DNA of 64,000 bases, from the NCBI GenBank assembly GCA_902538565.1, contig CACBFQ010000001.1, positions 200,001 to 264,000 of the forward strand, read 5' to 3'. This stretch comes from an uncultured Fidelibacterota bacterium (GTDB taxonomy: Bacteria > Fidelibacterota > Marinisomatia > Marinisomatales > Marinisomataceae). Under the pieces are notes generated by a model, which saw nothing but the letters and a program-made list of their open reading frames with translations, was not told the origin of the DNA and searched no databases. A program made the position numbers and the translations under genes. Shown here one piece after another: positions 18,636 through 60,750 of the stretch (positions are counted from its first letter, which is position 1; each line of letters starts with the position of its first letter).

Positions 18636-19610
18636 TTAAATTTGAGAATCCTCATTCAATGTTTTCAAAAAGGCAATCAATGCATCAAGCTCTCTATCAC
18701 TTAGTAATCCTTGATAGGTTGGCATAACTCCTTGATAGCCAGCTACAATTTGTGTCATTGGTTCTAGTATAGAACTTCTGATATAATTGTCATCTATAAC
18801 TGTGGAAGTTCCATCATCAAAAACTCTTTCTTGTCCCCACATTTGACTGGTTTGCAGGTAAGAGGGTCCAACTAAAGCAGAGCCATCAAGAGTGTGACAA
18901 GTATTACATGCTTTCTTTGTATAAAGCTTTGCACCTAACTCGTCTAATGGAAGATCGTCATCTTCAGAACCAAGTTCACTTGCCCATTCTTCATATTGTG
19001 CTGGCTGCATAACTATAACTTTTGCTCCCATTTGAGAGTGACCAGTTCCACAATATTCAGTACAAAATATATCGTAAACACCTTCCTTAGTAGCATCAAA
19101 CCACATCACATTATATCTATTTGGCAAACAATCCATTTTACTTCTCATTACAGGAATGAAGAAACTGTGTAAAACATCTTTGGATGATAAAACTAATTTA
19201 ACTGGCTTATTTGATGGAACAACTAACTCATTAAGGGTTGTACCTCCATCTGGATAATCAAAAGTCCAAAACCAACTTTGTCCAGTAACTTTAATCTCAA
19301 TAGCATCATCTGGAACAATCACCATTTTTAGATAAGAACGTATACCCCAAACAAAGGTAATGGATACTAAAATTAAAGGTATAATAAAAAACATAGACTC
19401 AAGTAGAGTACTATGATCTTTGCTGCTCGTCAACTTCAGTTCTTCACCTTTACGATGACGGTATTTAATTGATAAATAAACCATACCAAAAACAACTATC
19501 ACGAAGAGTGCTACTGATGAATAAAAAATGAAAAAATATAGGTTATCAATATCACTCGCAAAAGTTGATACTTGCTTGGGAAAGAAAAACTCTGTCAATC
19601 TATCTAACAT
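18636..19610 (-). CDS. ctaC: Cytochrome c oxidase subunit II with fused cytochrome c domain (caa3 type)
   Basis: CuA site CTEYCGTGHSQM; C-terminal heme motif CNTCH. Confidence 0.96.
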   Translation of the reverse strand: MLDRLTEFFFPKQVSTFASDIDNLYFFIFYSSVALFVIVVFGMVYLSIKYRHRKGEELKLTSSKDHSTLLESMFFIIPLILVSITFVWGIRSYLKMVIVPDDAIEIKVTGQSWFWTFDYPDGGTTLNELVVPSNKPVKLVLSSKDVLHSFFIPVMRSKMDCLPNRYNVMWFDATKEGVYDIFCTEYCGTGHSQMGAKVIVMQPAQYEEWASELGSEDDDLPLDELGAKLYTKKACNTCHTLDGSALVGPSYLQTSQMWGQERVFDDGTSTVIDDNYIRSSILEPMTQIVAGYQGVMPTYQGLLSDRELDALIAFLKTLNEDSQI

Positions 19611-20424
19611 TCAAACTGTCCTTATCAAATAAGTTTTTATCTTTTTTCCAATAACTTACTAGCATAATGCATAGAAAAAGGATAGTAAATATACCTCCTA
19701 AACGCATAATATTGGTAGCAAAAATTGTATAAGTATTTTTGTATGGATCATAATGATAACAATACAAAATAATCTTATCTAAAGTACTACCAATTTTCCC
19801 CTCTGATGCTTCTAAAATTCCCAATTTTAAATTCTTAACTGGATATTCAATTCCATATAGATATCGGGAAATTTTTCCTTCAGAACTTAGTAATGTTATG
19901 GCAGCTGGATGCATATATTCATCTCTCTGTGCATCATAATAATATATATAACCAATACTATCTGCAACTTTTTTTATATTTTCTTCTGTTCCAGTAAGAA
20001 AATGCCAGTCATCTTTAATATTTTCTAATCCAAATCCCTTGATGTAATTTTTCTTTTTTTGATTTGCAAATAAGGTTTTTTCATTTGGATTAATATCAAT
20101 AGTTATAACCTGAAATTCATCTCCAGCATTCAAAGTTAAATTTTTTAATGATTCAGCAAGACCATTAAGAACGAGAGTGCATAACATTGGACATTCAAAA
20201 TAATTTAATGTTAAGACTGTTGGGATCTCCTTATTAAAAAAAGTTGATAGCTCTACCTCGCTACCGCTCTCATCGATAAACACTGTATCAAGCGGAATAT
20301 AATCGCCTAAATTTTCAATAACATCTATTTGCTGTTCACTTGGAAATTCTTTTTTTAAAGTTTGGGCATGCGCAAGACTTGTTAGTAAAAGAAAAATAGA
20401 AAGAAAAATACTATTTCTTTTCAT
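19600..20424 (-). CDS. SCO1/SenC-family protein with C-terminal TM (paralog 2)
   Basis: CxxxC YFECPMLCTLVLNGL, HPAAITLLSSEGKISRYLYG. Confidence 0.88.
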   Translation of the reverse strand: MKRNSIFLSIFLLLTSLAHAQTLKKEFPSEQQIDVIENLGDYIPLDTVFIDESGSEVELSTFFNKEIPTVLTLNYFECPMLCTLVLNGLAESLKNLTLNAGDEFQVITIDINPNEKTLFANQKKKNYIKGFGLENIKDDWHFLTGTEENIKKVADSIGYIYYYDAQRDEYMHPAAITLLSSEGKISRYLYGIEYPVKNLKLGILEASEGKIGSTLDKIILYCYHYDPYKNTYTIFATNIMRLGGIFTILFLCIMLVSYWKKDKNLFDKDSLNVR

Positions 20425-20712: not shown

Positions 20713-21918
20713 TTAATGATTCCTGTGATTAATTGAATGTACAAGCTCTGTGTCATTTAATGGTACAAGATTTGATCTTGAGGTTATGTATTTAAAACCC
20801 CCAATGAAAATTAATGCAAAACTTAACATTGTAATCAAATCGTAAATACCAAAATAAAAATCTTGTTTATGTACAGTAGGCATTATGATAAAATTAATAT
20901 CTATATAATGCATAAATAAAACCCAAATGGTCATAACTTGTAATAACCTAATATTTCTTTTCGAACCTCTAAAAATTAAAATGAAAAATGGAATGAAAAA
21001 TTTCCCTACAATTAATAATACACTTATAACTTTCCAAGAGCCAACCCATCTGTGGAGATACCATATGGTTTCCTCTGGAATATTGCTGTACCAAATGAAA
21101 TAAAATTGTGCGCCAGCTATGTAGCAATAGAATACAGTAAAAGCAAATAAGTACTTTCCTAAATCATGAAAGTGTTCAATAGATACTATATCTTTTAAAT
21201 ATCCCTGATCTTGTAATCTAATTATGGTAAATGTTAAGAAAGCTAAGAATGCTAAGAAAGCTCCTGCAAATGTGTAAACACCATACATAGTTGAATACCA
21301 GTGCGGATCAAGACTCATTTGCCAATCCAATCCTGCAAATGTAAGACTAATAAAGAAAAAGACGCCAATTGGACTCATACAAAAATATCTTAGTCTCTCC
21401 AAAATTTTTATGTCACCGCTTTTATCATGTTTCGTAGAATTAAAGTATATAAATAGTGCTATAATATTCCATAAAGCAAAATATAGGAATGCTCTGAAAA
21501 TAAATGAGTCTTCATTTAAATATGCTAATTTGTGTTGAATTAAATAATCAGCCTCAAAATCATGAGTTTTCCAATAGTAGTGATTAGGAAGCCATTTAAA
21601 TAACTTTTCCATGCCAAAAATAATTGGAATAAATGGTAGAGTGAATAACGGTATTAACATAATTGTATTTTCCATGATTCTTCTTATAGACACACTCCAA
21701 GTTGCTGAAAAAGCATAATGCACCATAATAAAGAACATTCCACCTAAAATGATACTCAACCAATAAAAATATGAAGTTAAGTATGAGAAGTAAAATACCT
21801 TATCTGATGAGCCAAAAAACCAAGTTAAAAGTATTGCAATGTAACCAACTGCAATTAGAATCAAATTATTTGATTTTTTTGAAACATAAGAATAGGTCTT
21901 TGGATCAAGATTCATCAT
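20713..21918 (-). CDS. actF: Alternative complex III subunit ActF (quinol:cytochrome c oxidoreductase membrane subunit)
   Basis: Multi-TM; LTFAGLDWQMSLDPHWYSTMYGVYTFAGAFL; operon context. Confidence 0.9.
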   Translation of the reverse strand: MMNLDPKTYSYVSKKSNNLILIAVGYIAILLTWFFGSSDKVFYFSYLTSYFYWLSIILGGMFFIMVHYAFSATWSVSIRRIMENTIMLIPLFTLPFIPIIFGMEKLFKWLPNHYYWKTHDFEADYLIQHKLAYLNEDSFIFRAFLYFALWNIIALFIYFNSTKHDKSGDIKILERLRYFCMSPIGVFFFISLTFAGLDWQMSLDPHWYSTMYGVYTFAGAFLAFLAFLTFTIIRLQDQGYLKDIVSIEHFHDLGKYLFAFTVFYCYIAGAQFYFIWYSNIPEETIWYLHRWVGSWKVISVLLIVGKFFIPFFILIFRGSKRNIRLLQVMTIWVLFMHYIDINFIIMPTVHKQDFYFGIYDLITMLSFALIFIGGFKYITSRSNLVPLNDTELVHSINHRNH

Positions 21919-22523
21919 GAATTGTCACCTAACTTATTTTGCTCTTCTTGTGGCAAATCTTCAAAAGTAGCATTTTGACTTCTTTGAAGTGCTCTTACAT
22001 AATGGACGATCGACCAAACATCTTCAGTATCTATCTGATAACCGTAAGCAGGCATACTTCGCAGACCATAAACTATAGTATTATACATCTCTCCATCGGC
22101 TTGCTCTCTGATGCGTTGATCATGTAAATTTGCTGGAATTACTGGATAATCATATTGAGTTACAATACCTTTTCCGTTACCAACCTGTGAGTGGCAAACA
22201 CTACAATAAATGTTATACCTTTCCTGCCCTCTATCAAGAACTTCAGCAGACAATTCAAGTGGGTTAGAAATTATAAATGTGCCGTCATCATTTTTACCAC
22301 TAATAAATGAATGATTCTCAGCAATCATTCCTCTTGCTACAGTTCCTTCAATAGGCTTTCTCATGGTTGATCCATCAGTAAAAAAATTACTTTCTTCCAA
22401 AGAACGATATTTCTGTTGATTATCCATATTTGGATTTAAATGTATTGGAGTACTTTCAAACTTTGAACCTCTGAAACATCCGGTCAGAAATAGTAAACAA
22501 AATAAAATAATATTAATTCTCAT
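21915..22523 (-). CDS. actE: Alternative complex III subunit ActE, monoheme cytochrome c lipoprotein
   Basis: Lipobox LTGC; heme motif CSVCH; NPLELSAEVLDRGQERYNIYC. Confidence 0.9.
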   Translation of the reverse strand: MRINIILFCLLFLTGCFRGSKFESTPIHLNPNMDNQQKYRSLEESNFFTDGSTMRKPIEGTVARGMIAENHSFISGKNDDGTFIISNPLELSAEVLDRGQERYNIYCSVCHSQVGNGKGIVTQYDYPVIPANLHDQRIREQADGEMYNTIVYGLRSMPAYGYQIDTEDVWSIVHYVRALQRSQNATFEDLPQEEQNKLGDNS

Positions 22524-23058
22524 CTGTCAATACCTCTATTTCAGTTCCACCAATATTTTTTAAAAAATCGATTACACCACTTTCATCATACTTAGGATCA
22601 TCAATTTCAATGCTTACATAAAATGCATCACTACTGACATCAGAAAATTTTTCAGAATAAAAAACAGGGTGATGGAATCTTGGAATACGATTAAAGAACA
22701 TCATTCCAAATACTGCACCAAAAGCACTAAATAAAACCATTAACTCAAAAGTAATAATAGCATACGCAGGATATGCAAAATATGGCTTACCGCTAATGTT
22801 CATTGGATATTCAATAGAGTGAATCCAAGTTTGTAGCCCAAAACCAAACAATGCTCCAGTTAAACCCATTACTCCAATAACATAACCAAGCTTTGAACGT
22901 TTTAAACCCATGGCATCATCCATACCATGAATTGGAAATGGTGAATGACAATCAAATTTAGTAAAACCTTCATCACTTACTTTTTCTGCAGCATGCACCA
23001 ATGATTGAGGATTGTCAAACTTTGCTATTACACCATATTTACTCATGACTATCTCCAT
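22513..23058 (-). CDS. actD: Alternative complex III subunit ActD (DUF3341)
   Basis: [21 protein letters not shown]; two TMs. Confidence 0.92.
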
Positions 23059-24418
23059 GATGTGGATCCGACTCAGGTAAAACTAATTTTGCTTCTGCAA
23101 TTGAAACCATTGGTAAAAATCTTAGGAATAATAAAAATCCTGTAAAAAACAATCCGAACGTTCCCAAGTAAATAGCAACATCCCACATTGTTGGATTATA
23201 CATTGCCCATGCTCCAGGCATAAAATCTCTATGGAGTGTGATAACAACAATAACAAATCTTTCGAACCACATTCCAATATTCACAAGAATAGAGGTAATA
23301 AATAAAAATGGAATGTGTCTTCTGTATTTTTCAAACCAAAAGAATTGAGGTACTACAACATTACAAAATATCATTGCCCAATAACCCCACCAATATGGAC
23401 CTAAAGCTCTATTAACAAATGCAAAGGATTCGTATGGATTTCCACTATACCAAGCAACAAAGAACTCCATGGAATAGGCATACCCAACCATACAGCCTGT
23501 TAATAACATAATCTGAGCCATCTTGTCTAAGTGCTCAACAGTGATAATATGTCCTAAGTTATAGACTTTTCTTGCAATGATTGAAAGGGTCATAACCATC
23601 CCAAAGCCAGAATAAATTGCTCCAGCTACAAAATAAGGTGGAAAAATTGTTGTGTGCCAACCAGGAATTACACTTGTTGCAAAGTCAGAGCTAACAACAC
23701 TGTGCACAGATAAAACTAGAGGAGTTGAAATACCAGCAAGTACTAAATAGGCAAGCTCATAGTGTTGCCATTGACGATTTCCACCTCTCCATCCAAGAGC
23801 AAAAAATCCATAAACTTTCTTTTTTAAACCTTTTGCTCTGTCTCTTAATGTTGCTAAATCAGGTATTAAGCCTGTGTACCAAAAAAGTAAAGAAACAGTA
23901 AAATATGTAAAGACAGCAAAGAAGTCCCAAATCAATGGACTGCGCATGTTAGGCCACATTCCCATTTGGTTTGGAAGTGGTAAGAACCAATATGCAACCC
24001 ATATTCTACCAACGTGAATTCCAGGAAAAACTAGTGCACAAATAACAGCAAACAAAGTCATGGTTTCTGCAAACCTGTTAATTGCATTTCTCCAGTTCTG
24101 TCTGAACAAATGTAAGATTGCGGATATCAATGTACCAGCATGACCTATACCAACCCACCAAACAAAATTGATGATAGCCCAACCCCAAAAAACAGGATTA
24201 TTAATACCCCATATTCCAGTACCTTCCCAAATTAGAAATCCAACGCTTCCAACAAAAATAGATAAAAGCGAAAGTGAAAATCCAAATAATAACCACCATT
24301 GAATTGGTGTTTTTTTCTGTTCAGGTACACCAGCAATATCCTCAGTAATAGATGTAAAATCCTGGTTTCCAGGAAGAAGTTTTTCTGCTCTAATCAAAGC
24401 TTTTGATTTGATTGACAT
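23039..24418 (-). CDS. actC: Alternative complex III subunit ActC (NrfD/PsrC-like)
   Basis: [40 protein letters not shown]. Confidence 0.95.
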
Positions 24419-27400
24419 CTATTGATAACTCCCATTTTGAGATTTTGAAACAAGCATTGGGTTCTGATTTCTAATTTTTGCCAAATAAGTTGTTCGTGGA
24501 GCAGTACCTAAATGAGCTAGTAATGCATAATCGCGATTTCTTCTTTTTGCTTTGCTAACTTCACTGTTAGGATCATTTATATCTCCGAATTTAATTGCAT
24601 CAGCGGGACATGATTGTTGACAAGCAACCTGGAAGTCTCCATCTTTAATTTCTCTTCCTTCATTTTCCGCAGTAATTCTAGCTGAGCTAATTCTTTGATA
24701 ACAGTATGTACATTTTTCCATTACACCTCTAAACCTGATGGAAACATCCGGATTCATTGCCATCTGTACCACTTCAGGCAAATCTCTTGTGTAATTGTAA
24801 AAATTAAATTTTCTTACCTTGTAAGGACAATTATTTGCACAATATCTGGTTCCAAGGCATCTATTATAAGTCATTTGATTTACACCATCGGAAGAGTGTG
24901 TCGTAGCAGCTACTGGACAGACAGATTCACAAGGTGCAAGCTCACAATGAACACAAGCTACAGATTGAGTCGACACTTCAGGATTATCAGGATCTCCAGC
25001 AAAATAATTATCTATTCTTATCCAATGCATTTCTCTACCATTCATAACCTGCTGCTTACCTACAACTGGAATATTATTTTCACTTTGGCAAGCAATGGAA
25101 CAAGCATTACAAGAAGTACAACTCGTTAGATCGATTGACATTCCCCATTGTGGTCCTTTTGAATAATCCCAATCAGGATTATACATTGAATGATCAGCCC
25201 AACTTCTATTCTTATCTGGTTTATGTTGTTCAACCTTTTTTTGAACCCAATCAGGATTATCTTTATAGTAATCTAGTGTTGACTGTTTAACTAATTCTGG
25301 TATTCTTGATTGTGTCTCTTTATTGGCAAGGTCATCAAAACCTGGTGCAGCATACTTATCATCCTCTAATCCGTGATGATCTTGAGTTGAAGCTAGTGGA
25401 TATGTTTCGCTTAAAACTTTTATAGATCCATTTAATATAAATGATGGACTATCAGAACTTCTTAATGGATAAACATTAAATCCAACTTCATTTCCAATTC
25501 TTCCATTGAATTTTCTTCCATAACCCAATTCAAGGGTTATTGATTTTTGATTTTGTCCTGGTGTTATAAAAGCAGGAATATTTATAGATTTATCTCCAAC
25601 TGAGATTTCTAACATTTGACCATTTTTGATATTTAGTTTCTTTGCAACCTTTATACTAATTAGTGCAGCATTATCCCAAGTTAGGCTTGTTATTGGCTTA
25701 GGAATTTCTTGCAACCAACCGTTGTTTGCATACCTCCCATCGTAAACAGAAGAGGAAGGACAAAAAACAATTTCAAATTTATCATTATTTAAACTATAAT
25801 TATTTAATACAGCTGTAGATATTTTTGAAGCAGGCCTGACATTGACCTTTTTAAAAATTGGTTTTTTATATAACCCATCATGTAAAACTTTATCCCATTC
25901 TCTTTCAAAATTTCCACTTTTAATAATGTTTGATTTCCAAACATTTTTAACAGTATCATACGCACTTTGCTCTTTTGAGTGAATGATTGGAGAAAGTACT
26001 TGGATGATACTTTTAGAATCAAATAATGGCATAATTTGAGGTTGAACAATACTTACATGTCCATCGTAAGTCATTGCATCTCCCCAACATTCAAAATAAT
26101 GGTTCATAGCAATATTCCATGAACATAGCTTTGAGGTTTCATCAATTATATTAGTTAGATGAACTGAATTTTTAACTTTTTTCAATGATTCTGCAAAATC
26201 AAAATCAACAGGAGAATCATAAACTGGATTGGCGCCAAGAATGATTAAATTATTAATCTTGCCATTTTTCATGTCATTGCAAAGTGACTCAAAATTCTTT
26301 ATCGATGAAACCTGAGACATATTTAAAGGATAATAATCAACAGGAGCTTTTAAATTATAATTAATTAGAGCAATCAATTGGTGGAACTCTTTAGATAAAG
26401 ATGAACCTCCAATTATAATTGATTCACCTCTTCCATCAAATAAGTCTTTTGCGGCAGCTTTAACCCATAAATTATTTGAACTCTTAACTTTTTTGGCTTC
26501 AATTCTTAATCCAAGCTGTTTGAGTTCATAAGCTAATTCAGCTAATAAATTTTCCATCTCATATTGAGGGACATTTAGCCTGTGATCAGCACTTGTTCCG
26601 GTAGATGATATAGAGCTTTCAGCAACATACAATCTATTCATGGTGCTATTTTCGTCAACAATGTTTCTATTCTGAGCAAACTTTCTTGTATGGTATATAT
26701 TATTATCATCGACTCCCAAAAAGTCTGAACCCAATGAAACTATAATCTGAGCTTTTTCTAATCTATAAAGCGGTTGCAATCTTTTTGAAAACGCTAGTTC
26801 GATTCCGTCATATAAATTTTCGTTATTAACTGATTCATATACAACCCAATCTGCATTTGGTAAATTCTTTTTAAAGTCTTCCTGAATAGACTTAATAGTT
26901 GGGGAAGATGACTCTTGCATGAGCACTGCCAAACCTTTACCATTTCCATCATTGATACTTTTAGCAAACTTTAAATATTCATTCCAATCAACTTTATTAC
27001 CTTTAAACTTTACACCTCTTGCTCTATCAGGATCATACATTTCTAATGTGCTAGCCTGTGCAAAGGAATTTGATTTACCTAAAGAAGTTGGATGTTTTTC
27101 ATTACCCTCAACTTTCACAGGTCTTTCATCATGATTTTCAATAACAACACCTAAAGCATTATTTTTAAAAGGTAAAGTACTTGCATAATATTTAGGAATA
27201 CCAGGAATTGTACCAATTTCAGCTTCAACATAAGGGATGATTTTTTGAACAGGCTTTTTACAACCCTCTAATCCAGCAAGCGCAACTGATGCAGCAATCA
27301 ATGATAAAAAATTTCTTCTTGAAAGACCGTTATCAACATTATGCTCAGACTGTTTTAAAAAACGATTATAATCATCTTCTGATGAAATATCTTTAAGACT

Positions 27401-27502
27401 TTTCCAGTACCCAAATTCTTGATTAGTAGTATCCTCAAGAACGTGAGAATTAGTCTTAACAAATTCTTGATTCTTCTTTTCTATCTGTGACATTTTTGAC
27501 AA
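24419..27502 (-). CDS. actB: Alternative complex III subunit ActB (Mo-oxidoreductase-like + ferredoxin domain)
   Basis: Tat motif SRRNFL with lipobox LEGC; 4Fe-4S clusters CTSCNACSIACQ, CVHCELAPCESVCP, CTYCYQRI. Confidence 0.95.
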   Translation of the reverse strand: MSKMSQIEKKNQEFVKTNSHVLEDTTNQEFGYWKSLKDISSEDDYNRFLKQSEHNVDNGLSRRNFLSLIAASVALAGLEGCKKPVQKIIPYVEAEIGTIPGIPKYYASTLPFKNNALGVVIENHDERPVKVEGNEKHPTSLGKSNSFAQASTLEMYDPDRARGVKFKGNKVDWNEYLKFAKSINDGNGKGLAVLMQESSSPTIKSIQEDFKKNLPNADWVVYESVNNENLYDGIELAFSKRLQPLYRLEKAQIIVSLGSDFLGVDDNNIYHTRKFAQNRNIVDENSTMNRLYVAESSISSTGTSADHRLNVPQYEMENLLAELAYELKQLGLRIEAKKVKSSNNLWVKAAAKDLFDGRGESIIIGGSSLSKEFHQLIALINYNLKAPVDYYPLNMSQVSSIKNFESLCNDMKNGKINNLIILGANPVYDSPVDFDFAESLKKVKNSVHLTNIIDETSKLCSWNIAMNHYFECWGDAMTYDGHVSIVQPQIMPLFDSKSIIQVLSPIIHSKEQSAYDTVKNVWKSNIIKSGNFEREWDKVLHDGLYKKPIFKKVNVRPASKISTAVLNNYSLNNDKFEIVFCPSSSVYDGRYANNGWLQEIPKPITSLTWDNAALISIKVAKKLNIKNGQMLEISVGDKSINIPAFITPGQNQKSITLELGYGRKFNGRIGNEVGFNVYPLRSSDSPSFILNGSIKVLSETYPLASTQDHHGLEDDKYAAPGFDDLANKETQSRIPELVKQSTLDYYKDNPDWVQKKVEQHKPDKNRSWADHSMYNPDWDYSKGPQWGMSIDLTSCTSCNACSIACQSENNIPVVGKQQVMNGREMHWIRIDNYFAGDPDNPEVSTQSVACVHCELAPCESVCPVAATTHSSDGVNQMTYNRCLGTRYCANNCPYKVRKFNFYNYTRDLPEVVQMAMNPDVSIRFRGVMEKCTYCYQRISSARITAENEGREIKDGDFQVACQQSCPADAIKFGDINDPNSEVSKAKRRNRDYALLAHLGTAPRTTYLAKIRNQNPMLVSKSQNGSYQ

Positions 27503-28128
27503 TCCTCAACAGGTCTTTCTTCACCATGTTCTGCTACCCACGATGAAACAAATTGATCATAATCTGCAGGTGGAGTCCAATACATATTGGTTACTTCACT
27601 TACAGGTCTTACTTCAGGTGCATCAGATCTATGACAATCTAAACACCAATCCATACTTAAAGGTTGGACTTGATAAACAACTTCCATTTCTGCAATATTT
27701 CCATGACAAGATATACAAGCTACTCCAGAATTAACATGAACGCTGTGATTAAAATAAGCGTATTCTGGAAGCATGTGAACTTTTATCCATTCAATTGGTT
27801 TTCCAGTTTCCCAACTTTCTCTTACTAATTTCAATTTTTCGCTGTCAGTTTTTACATAAGTATGACAGCCCATACATGTTTCAGTTGGAGGTATTACTGC
27901 TGAATAGCCTTGCTCAACACCAACATGACAATAGCGGCAATCTATACCCATATCACCAGCGTGTAATTTATGACTATATGGAACTGGTTGAGTTGGCGCA
28001 TAACCAACATCTGTATAGTAAGGAGAGCCATAATACCAAATAAAAGAAGATAACGAAAAGATTAGCAGAAAAACTGCTATCAGGAAAATTCCTGGAAAAT
28101 TATTTGTCCATCTTGGGAATATTTGCAT
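27481..28128 (-). CDS. actA: Alternative complex III subunit ActA, pentaheme cytochrome c
   Basis: Five CxxCH motifs: CRYCH, CMGCH, CISCH, CLDCH, CQKCH. Confidence 0.94.
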   Translation of the reverse strand: MQIFPRWTNNFPGIFLIAVFLLIFSLSSFIWYYGSPYYTDVGYAPTQPVPYSHKLHAGDMGIDCRYCHVGVEQGYSAVIPPTETCMGCHTYVKTDSEKLKLVRESWETGKPIEWIKVHMLPEYAYFNHSVHVNSGVACISCHGNIAEMEVVYQVQPLSMDWCLDCHRSDAPEVRPVSEVTNMYWTPPADYDQFVSSWVAEHGEERPVEDCQKCHR

Positions 28129-58841: not shown

Positions 58842-59381
58842 TTATTTCTGATTTTCTATAGATCCCACTAAGTAGACCTTTATATCCACTTGATTTCGAA
58901 TTTTAATAGTTAATAATGCAGGTCTTTTAATTTTGAAATCAGTAAGCATAATTGAAAAATCTGATGTAACTATAATATTTTCATTGTCTTCATTTAGCTC
59001 TACTGGAATAGTAAATTCTTTTGTTATTCCATGAAAACTAAGATTACCTACTACATCAAATCCGCTTTCTGATTTGTTTATTTTGGAAGAAGTGAATCTG
59101 ACAAATGGATAGTAGTACTCTTCAACAACATCCAGCATATTTGAGTCTCGATTAGCATTTTTACTATCAAAGCTAAATACTGGAACAAATAAGTCTACTT
59201 TTGATTGTGTTAAATCTTGTTTATTTATCTCAAAAGTTCCTTGAATATCTTTCGATATACCAGTCCAATTATGAGCAGGATGTTTACCATCATAAGAGAT
59301 AAAACTTTTGGTTAAGTCAAACTCAACAAATGATTGAGCAAACAGAAATTGGAAAAATAATATGGAAATAAATTTCTTCAC
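58842..59381 (-). CDS. YceI-family periplasmic protein
   Basis: DLTKSFISYDGKHPAHNWTGISKDIQGTFEI; NLSFHGITKEFTIPVEL; GTG start overlaps upstream TGA. Confidence 0.88.
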   Translation of the reverse strand: MKKFISILFFQFLFAQSFVEFDLTKSFISYDGKHPAHNWTGISKDIQGTFEINKQDLTQSKVDLFVPVFSFDSKNANRDSNMLDVVEEYYYPFVRFTSSKINKSESGFDVVGNLSFHGITKEFTIPVELNEDNENIIVTSDFSIMLTDFKIKRPALLTIKIRNQVDIKVYLVGSIENQK

Positions 59382-60040
59382 TTAAAAAATGTAATTCCTA
59401 ACGCATCCAAGCTTAGAGCAAAAAATGCTACTGTTCCTGCTTTCAAATGAGCATCCATTAGCTCATTATACCGCTTGCCACTTTCTACCGCTTTTTTTGC
59501 TAAGAACGGTTGAGCCATCATTGCAGTAAAATGTAAAGCAGCCATTCTTCTATGAAATTTTATTGAACTCATATTGTTGTCATACTTTCGAGCAGGAGGA
59601 GAAAAAAATGACATTGAAGCAGTTGACATGTAGGTCATATATGTAAAATACCCCATAGCTTTGTGTTTATCATAATGTGATTCCCAATAATCGCTATCAT
59701 CACCATCATAAAGTTTTTTCCCTACGTCATATTGATAAGCTAAACCAGCTAAAGTTATAATTCCTAACCACTGATGAGCTTGGAGCATTTTTCTGCGCAA
59801 CTTTAGTTCTTCAATTCTGGTTTCAGGACCAATATTTAATTTTCTAAATGCACCCTCTTTTCCCCAAATTAAAGATTTGACATAAGGCATATTTTCTGGT
59901 AACCCGATCTCAGGAGGAGTAAACCTTGAATCATAAGATTCTTGTGTTACTATTGATTGAGAAAATAATAACGAACAAAATAAACTAATCATTATGATTT
60001 TTTTAAAATTCAGATTTTTTAAGTGATTCATGACCTCCAA
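59378..60040 (-). CDS. Exported four-helix membrane protein, putative cytochrome b561-like
   Basis: Signal peptide LLFSQ; four hydrophobic helices each with an N-terminal His (AHQWLG, KHKAMGYF, FHRRMAALH, AHLKAGTV); operon with YceI. Confidence 0.45.
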   Translation of the reverse strand: MEVMNHLKNLNFKKIIMISLFCSLLFSQSIVTQESYDSRFTPPEIGLPENMPYVKSLIWGKEGAFRKLNIGPETRIEELKLRRKMLQAHQWLGIITLAGLAYQYDVGKKLYDGDDSDYWESHYDKHKAMGYFTYMTYMSTASMSFFSPPARKYDNNMSSIKFHRRMAALHFTAMMAQPFLAKKAVESGKRYNELMDAHLKAGTVAFFALSLDALGITFFK

Positions 60041-60099
60041 TATTAAAAATTTTTAGTATCAAATTTTAATATTAATTTTTTTTTATTATATTTCAGTCC

Positions 60100-60750
60100 A
60101 TGAAAGATAAAATAAAAAAAACATGTGACTGTGATTGCTTAGATAAGCAAGCCACAGACCCTTCTCGAAGAGATTTTATCAGAAAAGCATCAACCTTAAC
60201 CCTAATTGGTGGATCTGCATTCATTCTTGAAGCTTGCGGTGGTGGAGGTTCTCCAACATCTTCAGGTGGAGATACTTATGGAGGTGGAGATACTGGTGGT
60301 GGTAATACTGGTGGTGGTAATACTGGCGGTGGCGGTAATTCTGGCGGCGGTAATTCTGGCGGCGGTAATAATGGTGGCGGTTCTGGAGATACAGGATACA
60401 ACTATGATGTATCAACAGGAGTAATTACCATTAACATTACTATGATCTATGAAACATTACAAACCATTGGAAATGGAATTGCTCTTAGTGGAAGTGATAC
60501 ATTCGATAATAGGGGTATCATTGTCTTAAGGACAAGTAATTCTGGTATTCGAGCTTTGTCAAGAAATTGTACTCACGCTGGTTTTACAGTGAATATTAAT
60601 AATGCTGCAAATAACTTAATTTGTCCAAGTCATAACTCTGTTTTTGACTTGAATGGAAATGTTATATCTGGTCCAGCCTCAGGATCTTTAACTAGATACC
60701 AGGCTTCATTAAATGCAGACAGTACAATAATTACAATTACTCAGGGCTAG
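60100..60750 (+). CDS. Tat-exported Rieske [2Fe-2S] lipoprotein with Gly/Asn/Thr-rich linker
   Basis: Tat motif SRRDFIRKA; lipobox LEAC; Rieske ligands CTHAG...CPSH. Confidence 0.88.
   Translation: MKDKIKKTCDCDCLDKQATDPSRRDFIRKASTLTLIGGSAFILEACGGGGSPTSSGGDTYGGGDTGGGNTGGGNTGGGGNSGGGNSGGGNNGGGSGDTGYNYDVSTGVITINITMIYETLQTIGNGIALSGSDTFDNRGIIVLRTSNSGIRALSRNCTHAGFTVNINNAANNLICPSHNSVFDLNGNVISGPASGSLTRYQASLNADSTIITITQG
60237..60389 (+). repeat. In-frame Gly-rich microsatellite-like repeat (GGTGGTAATACTGGTGGTGG / GGCGGCGGTAATTCT units)
   Basis: Tandem GGGNTGGGNTGGGGNSGGGNSGGGNNGGGSG coding repeats. Confidence 0.85.

What the first reader, a model, noticed from the sequence alone, without database searches (positions are those of the whole stretch)
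58842..60750. YceI + four-His membrane protein + divergent Rieske lipoprotein: candidate periplasmic redox module
The 220-aa protein at 59378-60040 has four hydrophobic helices, each beginning with a histidine (AHQWLG; KHKAMGY; FHRRMAALH; AHLKAG). With alternating topology, His in helices 1/3 and 2/4 would lie on opposite membrane faces, as in diheme cytochrome b561. It is coupled by a GTGA overlap to a YceI-family gene; E. coli has an analogous yceJ (b561)-yceI pair. Across a ~60-bp divergent gap sits a Tat/lipobox Rieske protein with no cytochrome b nearby, and this genome uses ACIII rather than a visible bc1. Heme binding and functional linkage are inferred.
Basis: partly seen in the sequence, partly recalled or inferred. 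Interest (0 to 1): 0.6.

Follow-up and report, generated by a model that had tools for sequence, protein, structure and literature searches.

The report
Unannotated diheme b561–YceI–Rieske redox module
A small membrane protein that almost certainly holds two hemes is paired across several bacterial phyla with a lipid- or quinone-carrying YceI protein and, alternatively, a Rieske iron-sulfur lipoprotein or a small c-type cytochrome, forming what looks like a previously undescribed version of a bacterial system that protects membrane lipids from oxidation.

Summary
The 220-aa protein (59378-60040, -) overlaps a YceI gene by GTGA and lies 59 bp from a divergent Tat-lipoprotein Rieske gene. Homologues come from its own phylum (Marinimicrobia), a Bacteroidota plasmid and a third, unnamed phylum. 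They are spaced 37/37/35, against 36/34/39 for the four heme ligands of human Dcytb. Pfam sees eukaryotic-type cytochrome b561 weakly (below cut-off) in 21 of 29 homologues. YceI adjoins in 41 of 45 informative loci. A Rieske gene lies beside the pair in 22 of 46 loci, a CxxCH lipoprotein in 9, and never both. The genome has no cytochrome b and carries ACIII. Best reading: a diheme b561-type core exchanges electrons between the quinone pool and the periplasm, where a Rieske or cyt c carrier and the YceI lipocalin act, like the LcoA-BcnA lipid-peroxyl detoxification pair. Diheme binding is strongly supported by sequence; direction and substrate are inferred. AlphaFold2 gave a low-confidence model (pLDDT 52-56), so heme geometry is untested. 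New variant of a known kind.

The parts
59378..60040 (-). Diheme b561-type four-helix membrane protein, 220 aa (217 aa if it starts at ATG 60031); N-terminal signal peptide, conserved periplasmic stretch, four helices
   Evidence: ORF; PF03188 E 0.001, sub-threshold; 21/29 homologues hit PF03188; hydropathy; invariant residues R82 L86 H89 Q90 G107 H126 P148 H163 H198
59774..59776 (-). H89 codon, predicted heme ligand (helix 1, periplasmic side)
   Evidence: 39/39 conserved; in the weak hmmsearch alignment to 4O6Y it pairs with a His 39 residues before a second one, the spacing of the Dcytb ligands H120/H159
59663..59665 (-). H126 codon, predicted heme ligand (helix 2, cytoplasmic side)
   Evidence: 39/39 conserved; aligned with the second of those His in 4O6Y; resembles the E. 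coli YceJ helix HKSIG...SPPP
59552..59554 (-). H163 codon, predicted heme ligand (helix 3, pairs with H89)
   Evidence: 39/39 conserved; aligned with the FHW His of E. coli YceJ (weak)
59447..59449 (-). H198 codon, predicted heme ligand (helix 4, pairs with H126)
   Evidence: 39/39 conserved; aligned with the ELHKSIG His of E. coli YceJ (weak)
58842..59381 (-). YceI-family periplasmic lipocalin-like protein, 179 aa, translationally coupled to the b561 gene (GTGA)
   Evidence: PF04264 77.8 bits; PDB relatives 1y0g YceI (E 3.7e-12) and polyisoprenoid-binding proteins 5w2x etc.
60100..60750 (+). Tat-exported Rieske [2Fe-2S] lipoprotein, 216 aa, with a Gly/Asn linker; ligands C157, H159, C175, H178
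   Evidence: PF00355 39.6 bits; nearest solved relatives are b6f/Rieske ferredoxin-like chains; ligand motif conserved in the genus; no disulfide Cys pair (CTHAGF...CPSHNS)
60163..60237 (+). Tat motif SRRDFI and lipobox LEAC of the Rieske protein
   Evidence: sequence; conserved in genus homologues
60041..60099 (.). 59-bp divergent intergenic gap (shared promoter region)
   Evidence: sequence; the divergent layout was seen only in this genus, other lineages are co-directional

Best explanation
The 220-aa protein is an unannotated diheme cytochrome of b561 type. Helices 1 and 3 (H89, H163) hold a heme near the periplasmic face; helices 2 and 4 (H126, H198) hold a heme near the cytoplasmic face. 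It is the membrane core of a conserved module whose second part is a YceI lipocalin that binds an isoprenoid lipid or quinone, and whose third part is a lipid-anchored periplasmic one-electron carrier: a Rieske protein here, a c-type cytochrome in other lineages. It most likely passes electrons from the quinol pool across the membrane to the periplasm to keep the YceI-bound quinone or lipid reduced, quenching lipid radicals, as proposed for LcoA-BcnA. Shown: the gene order, the invariant His, the conserved linkage and the Rieske/cyt c alternation. Inferred: heme content, His pairing, topology, electron direction, substrate and antioxidant role.
For: Four His invariant in 39 sequences from three or more phyla while the other three His are lost. 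Spacing 37/37/35, against 36/34/39 in Dcytb, whose ligands pair on alternate helices, H50-H120 and H86-H159. PF03188 hits in 21/29 members, with PF01292, PF10067 and PF01794 also sub-threshold. A PDB profile search up to E 10 returned only designed diheme bundles (m4D2/4D2) and AtCytb561 4O6Y, with His aligned to His. YceI coupled in 36/36 Marinimicrobia loci with both genes and in most second-phylum loci. Rieske in 22/46 loci, cyt c in 9/46, both in 0 (Fisher p = 0.0016); several independent changes on the tree; PSCyt1 above cut-off for two of the cyt c genes. LcoA-BcnA knock-outs raise lipid peroxidation and a BcnA homologue binds ubiquinone-8 (PMC9113575). The Fibrella module lies beside Dps-type and catalase genes; one Marinimicrobia module has AhpC next to YceI (L052).
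Against: No curated family is met: PF03188 19.8 bits against 23, and hhalign to E. coli YceJ is weak. AlphaFold2 models are low confidence, so His geometry is untested. Basic residues cluster on the face assigned to the periplasm, against the positive-inside rule. The Fisher test ignores relatedness. Fifteen of 46 loci have neither partner nearby, and some Rieske homologues lie unlinked elsewhere. Seven of 24 genus genomes lack the gene, two of them at least 93% complete. The Rieske lacks the disulfide of high-potential Rieske proteins in this lineage but has it in the second phylum, so its potential and partner may differ.
Confidence: 0.6

Rival explanations
1. Electrons run inwards: the periplasmic heme takes electrons from superoxide or reduced periplasmic carriers (Rieske or cyt c) and the cytoplasmic-side heme reduces quinone, like the superoxide:ubiquinone oxidoreductase CybB.
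For: CybB of E. coli, a b561, is reported to work this way (cited in PMC9113575); oxidative-stress neighbours (AhpC in L052; catalase and Dps in Fibrella).
Against: It gives YceI no clear role; the near-constant association with YceI points to a lipid or quinone client. Sequence cannot tell direction.
Confidence: 0.17
2. A minimal, independently evolved Rieske/cytochrome b quinol oxidase: quinol oxidised at the periplasmic face gives one electron to the Rieske (or cyt c) and one to the diheme core, with YceI delivering the quinone; a b561-based analogue of bc1/b6f.
For: A diheme b core, a Rieske and a quinone-binding lipocalin in one module; Rieske replaced by cyt c; no bc1 cytochrome b in the genome; second-phylum Rieske proteins carry the disulfide cysteines typical of bc-type Rieske.
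Against: Respiration already has ACIII beside a CoxB-like gene; one His per helix is the b561 and not the bc1 arrangement; the Rieske here lacks the disulfide; 15 of 46 loci have no linked carrier.
Confidence: 0.1
3. A biosynthetic redox enzyme: the diheme core and the Rieske/cyt c supply electrons for modifying a polyisoprenoid (for example a quinone tail or carotenoid-like lipid) that YceI carries.
For: YceI relatives bind polyisoprenoids (PDB names); the Rieske/cyt c exchange suggests the need is simply for an electron carrier.
Against: No catalytic oxygenase or reductase is linked across lineages; the clustering found no other recurrent enzyme.
Confidence: 0.08
4. The linkage is incidental and the four His are not heme ligands (for example structural or metal-binding).
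For: No heme assay, no confident structure, no family above cut-off.
Against: Invariance of exactly one His per helix over three phyla, b561-like spacing, repeated YceI plus Rieske/cyt c linkage.
Confidence: 0.05

Closest known systems
LcoA-BcnA (cytochrome b561 + YceI lipocalin; E. coli yceJ-yceI), PMC9113575
   Same: b561-type membrane gene directly upstream of a YceI gene, usually as an operon; same YceI fold and predicted periplasmic location.
   Different: The membrane protein is not PF01292 and has a signal peptide plus four helices; a Rieske lipoprotein or c-type cytochrome is added; no paper in the library joins b561, YceI and Rieske (text searches). No fusion was seen here, unlike in alpha-proteobacteria.
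Eukaryotic-type cytochrome b561 (Dcytb, AtCytb561; PF03188)
   Same: Four ligand-type His, one per helix, similar spacing, alternate-helix pairing expected; LHSWLG-like start and the Q-x3-G motif of helix 1.
   Different: Only the four-helix core, no flanking helices; Pfam score below cut-off; a bacterial operon with YceI; no ascorbate-site evidence.
Rieske/cytochrome b complexes (bc1, b6f)
   Same: A periplasmic Rieske protein next to a diheme b-type membrane protein.
   Different: No bc-type cytochrome b; one His per helix; the Rieske is a Tat lipoprotein with a Gly-rich linker and, in this lineage, no disulfide Cys.
Designed diheme four-helix bundles (4D2, m4D2)
   Same: His-bearing helix sequences recovered by the family profile.
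   Different: Artificial proteins; the similarity reflects the shared diheme design and is not evidence of kinship.

Membership tests
Cytochrome b561, eukaryotic type (PF03188) | Profile score at or above the curated cut-off (23 bits) | tested here: not met
   19.8 bits, E 0.001; 21 of 29 homologues hit, best E 2e-4
Cytochrome b561, eukaryotic type (PF03188) | Four invariant His, one in each core helix | tested here: met
   H89, H126, H163, H198 in 39/39 sequences
Cytochrome b561, eukaryotic type (PF03188) | His on helices i and i+2 facing each other as bis-His heme ligands | tested here: inconclusive
   AlphaFold2 models pLDDT 52-56; spacing agrees with Dcytb
Cytochrome b561, eukaryotic type (PF03188) | Six transmembrane helices | tested here: not met
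   Four hydrophobic segments plus a signal peptide
Cytochrome b561, prokaryotic type (PF01292; CybB, YceJ, LcoA) | Profile score at or above the curated cut-off | tested here: not met
   No PF01292 match in the whole genome at E 0.001; two homologues weakly hit; hhalign to YceJ weak
LcoA-BcnA system | YceI/BcnA lipocalin encoded next to a b561-type gene | tested here: met
   PF04264 77.8 bits; adjacency in 36/36 Marinimicrobia loci with both genes
LcoA-BcnA system | Loss raises membrane lipid peroxidation | not testable with these tools
   needs mutants
LcoA-BcnA system | PsrA aldehyde reductase in the genome | not tested
   not searched
YceI family (PF04264) | Profile score above cut-off | tested here: met
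   77.8 against 23.7 bits; YceI structures found
Rieske proteins (PF00355) | Two Cys and two His cluster ligands (CxH...CxxH) | tested here: met
   CTH...CPSH, conserved in the genus; 39.6 bits
bc1/b6f complex | bc-type cytochrome b in the genome | tested here: not met
   No PF00033 match in the genome; 8 of 14 control genomes ring

The most novel reading that the evidence does not exclude
A b561-based analogue of the bc complexes: a minimal diheme core plus a Rieske (or cytochrome c) lipoprotein that oxidises quinol delivered by a YceI lipocalin at the periplasmic face, evolved independently of cytochrome b and spread over several phyla.
Probability: 0.1. Interest if true: 0.85.

Novelty: new variant of a known kind. 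Interest (0 to 1): 0.58.

Why it matters
How bacteria stop lipid peroxidation in the envelope is largely open, and the paper that found LcoA-BcnA calls for the missing components. This family names a membrane protein still annotated 'hypothetical', adds a third component (Rieske or cytochrome c, apparently interchangeable), and spreads the principle to Marinimicrobia, a Bacteroidota plasmid and a third phylum with larger genomes, where it could be tested. It also gives the Rieske lipoprotein of this lineage, which has no cytochrome b, a plausible partner.

Tried and rejected
AlphaFold2 with the only alignments allowed (11-13 close relatives) gave pLDDT 52-56; the Foldseek search with the better model had no match at E 0.001 and is not used. 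The profile of close homologues found nothing relevant in the PDB, nor did the Marinimicrobia-Bacteroidota profile. A viral-contig scan found no relative. A second tblastn against plasmids added nothing. hhalign against E. coli YceJ gave one suggestive and one weak alignment in different registers, so it is not counted as proof. 'Chance adjacency' was rejected by the cross-phylum survey. A regex that seemed to show Rieske proteins without ligands was traced to variable spacing (CxxxH, CSQQGGSH), a degenerate second copy and one permuted protein.

Full report
What is there. The b561-like ORF ends ...AAG TGA, and the YceI GTG start overlaps that stop by four bases. The b561-like ORF can start at TTG 60040 or ATG 60031; several genus homologues support the ATG. 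YceI (PF04264, 77.8 bits) and Rieske (PF00355, 39.6 bits) are certain; the 220-aa protein gives only a sub-threshold Cytochrom_B561 match (19.8 bits, cut-off 23) and nothing relevant in NCBIfam. The genome (969 kb, 96% complete) holds a second YceI, one other Rieske, which is a ring-hydroxylating oxygenase alpha subunit, no cytochrome b, no PF01292 b561, and an NrfD in an ACIII operon in the window.

The family. Twelve close relatives (82-97% identity) were found in Marinimicrobia genomes. A profile search over 245 genomes of the phylum found the protein in 38, including 21 from other families at about 31-44% identity. One relative lies on a plasmid of Fibrella (Bacteroidota), annotated 'hypothetical'. 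A relatives search then reached two further phyla. One of these, searched whole, has it in 83 of 195 genomes.

The histidines. In 37 Marinimicrobia sequences H89, H126, H163, H198 and also H170 are invariant. In 39 sequences including Fibrella and 15 from the second phylum the invariant residues are R82, L86, H89, Q90, G107, H126, P148, H163 and H198. H170 is 0 of 15 in the second phylum, and H122 and H6 are not conserved. Dcytb uses H50-H120 and H86-H159 (PMC6123691), spacing 36/34/39, against 37/37/35 here. The broad profile searched against the PDB returned, up to E 10, only designed diheme bundles and AtCytb561 (4O6Y, E 0.55), in which H89 and H126 align to His 39 residues apart, the spacing of H120 and H159 in Dcytb. 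Each hit alone is weak; together with PF03188 matches in 21 of 29 members they point one way.

Topology. A signal peptide and four hydrophobic segments are seen; in the second phylum a long Pro-rich linker follows the signal, which fits an N-terminus outside. Then H89/H163 face the periplasm and H126/H198 the cytoplasm. Against this, net positive charge sits on the putative periplasmic side (+2.1, +1.7 against -0.2, +0.3). This is unexplained; the basic residues may serve partner docking or heme propionates.

The neighbourhood. In all 36 Marinimicrobia loci where both genes were found, YceI follows directly on the same strand, with gaps of -47 to +6 bases, mostly -4 to +1; the 37th locus ends at a contig end. 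In the window's genus Rieske is divergent; in other Marinimicrobia families it follows YceI co-directionally (L049, L054, L058, L060, L061; one gene between in L047). In the second phylum b561-YceI-Rieske is the commonest order. Fibrella has Rieske-b561-YceI, near Dps-type and catalase genes. Over 46 loci, scripted counts gave YceI 40; L087 was missed only because its ORF is over-long, so 41, or 41 of 45 leaving out the contig-end locus L067. Rieske 22, CxxCH lipoprotein 9, both 0, neither 15 (Fisher p 0.0016, not corrected for relatedness). On the tree the partner label changes several times: starred branches force at least three changes each for Rieske and cyt c, and both partners occur in both main clades. 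Two of the cyt c genes pass the PSCyt1 cut-off; for the double-CxxCH lipoproteins of the second phylum the call rests on the motifs, as Pfam matches are sub-threshold. So the near-constant pair is b561 + YceI; the third part is an exchangeable periplasmic one-electron carrier.

What it does. The closest studied system is LcoA-BcnA, where mutants accumulate lipid peroxides, a BcnA homologue binds ubiquinone-8, and the authors propose that the b561 re-reduces the bound quinone (PMC9113575). The present module has the same logic, with a different b561-type protein and an added carrier. Outward electron flow is my choice because YceI is near-constant and the carrier optional; the reverse cannot be excluded from sequence. 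Rieske proteins of the window's lineage lack the disulfide cysteines, those of the second phylum have them, so redox potentials probably differ (inference from established knowledge of Rieske proteins), which argues for a general carrier role rather than a bc-type cycle.

Limits. No confident structure, no heme assay, many genomes are assembled from metagenomes or single cells, and phyla other than those named were not searched systematically. Absence of earlier description rests on full-text searches of an open-access library and on missing curated families.

Noticed in passing
L049:5934-6422 (-), genome G170 C34: The Rieske next to this module looks circularly permuted: the CPCH half comes before the CTH half, after a normal Tat-type lipoprotein signal; Pfam matches it in two stretches, with the C-terminal half of the profile near the N-terminus. 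A related genome (G075) has the usual order. One genome assembly only.
   Followed up: partly
L013:4608-5183 (-) and L014:4634-5209 (-): A second, tandem Rieske copy in which both cluster His are lost (CTN...CPSC), beside an intact copy.
   Followed up: partly
window 60290-60381: Gly/Asn/Thr-rich linker of the Rieske gene is a 15-bp tandem repeat (5.9 copies); its length varies between genus members (195-240 aa proteins).
   Followed up: no
L135:4888-7398 (-): A second-phylum relative without YceI, Rieske or cyt c sits beside a membrane polyferredoxin and a DUF362 protein, perhaps another electron partner for the same diheme core.
   Followed up: no
L047:5828-6463 (-), L050:1811-2443 (-): An unnamed ~210-aa protein without a Pfam match (L050 copy scanned) follows YceI in two Marinimicrobia genomes, with a flavin-reductase-like gene nearby.
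   Followed up: no
window 20713-28128 (-): Complete-looking alternative complex III operon beside a CoxB-like gene (18636-19610) and a SCO-like gene (19600-20424).
   Followed up: partly
genomes G039 and G041 (same genus): Two genus members of 93-95% completeness lack the b561 gene, although G041 keeps Rieske relatives: the module can be lost.
   Followed up: no
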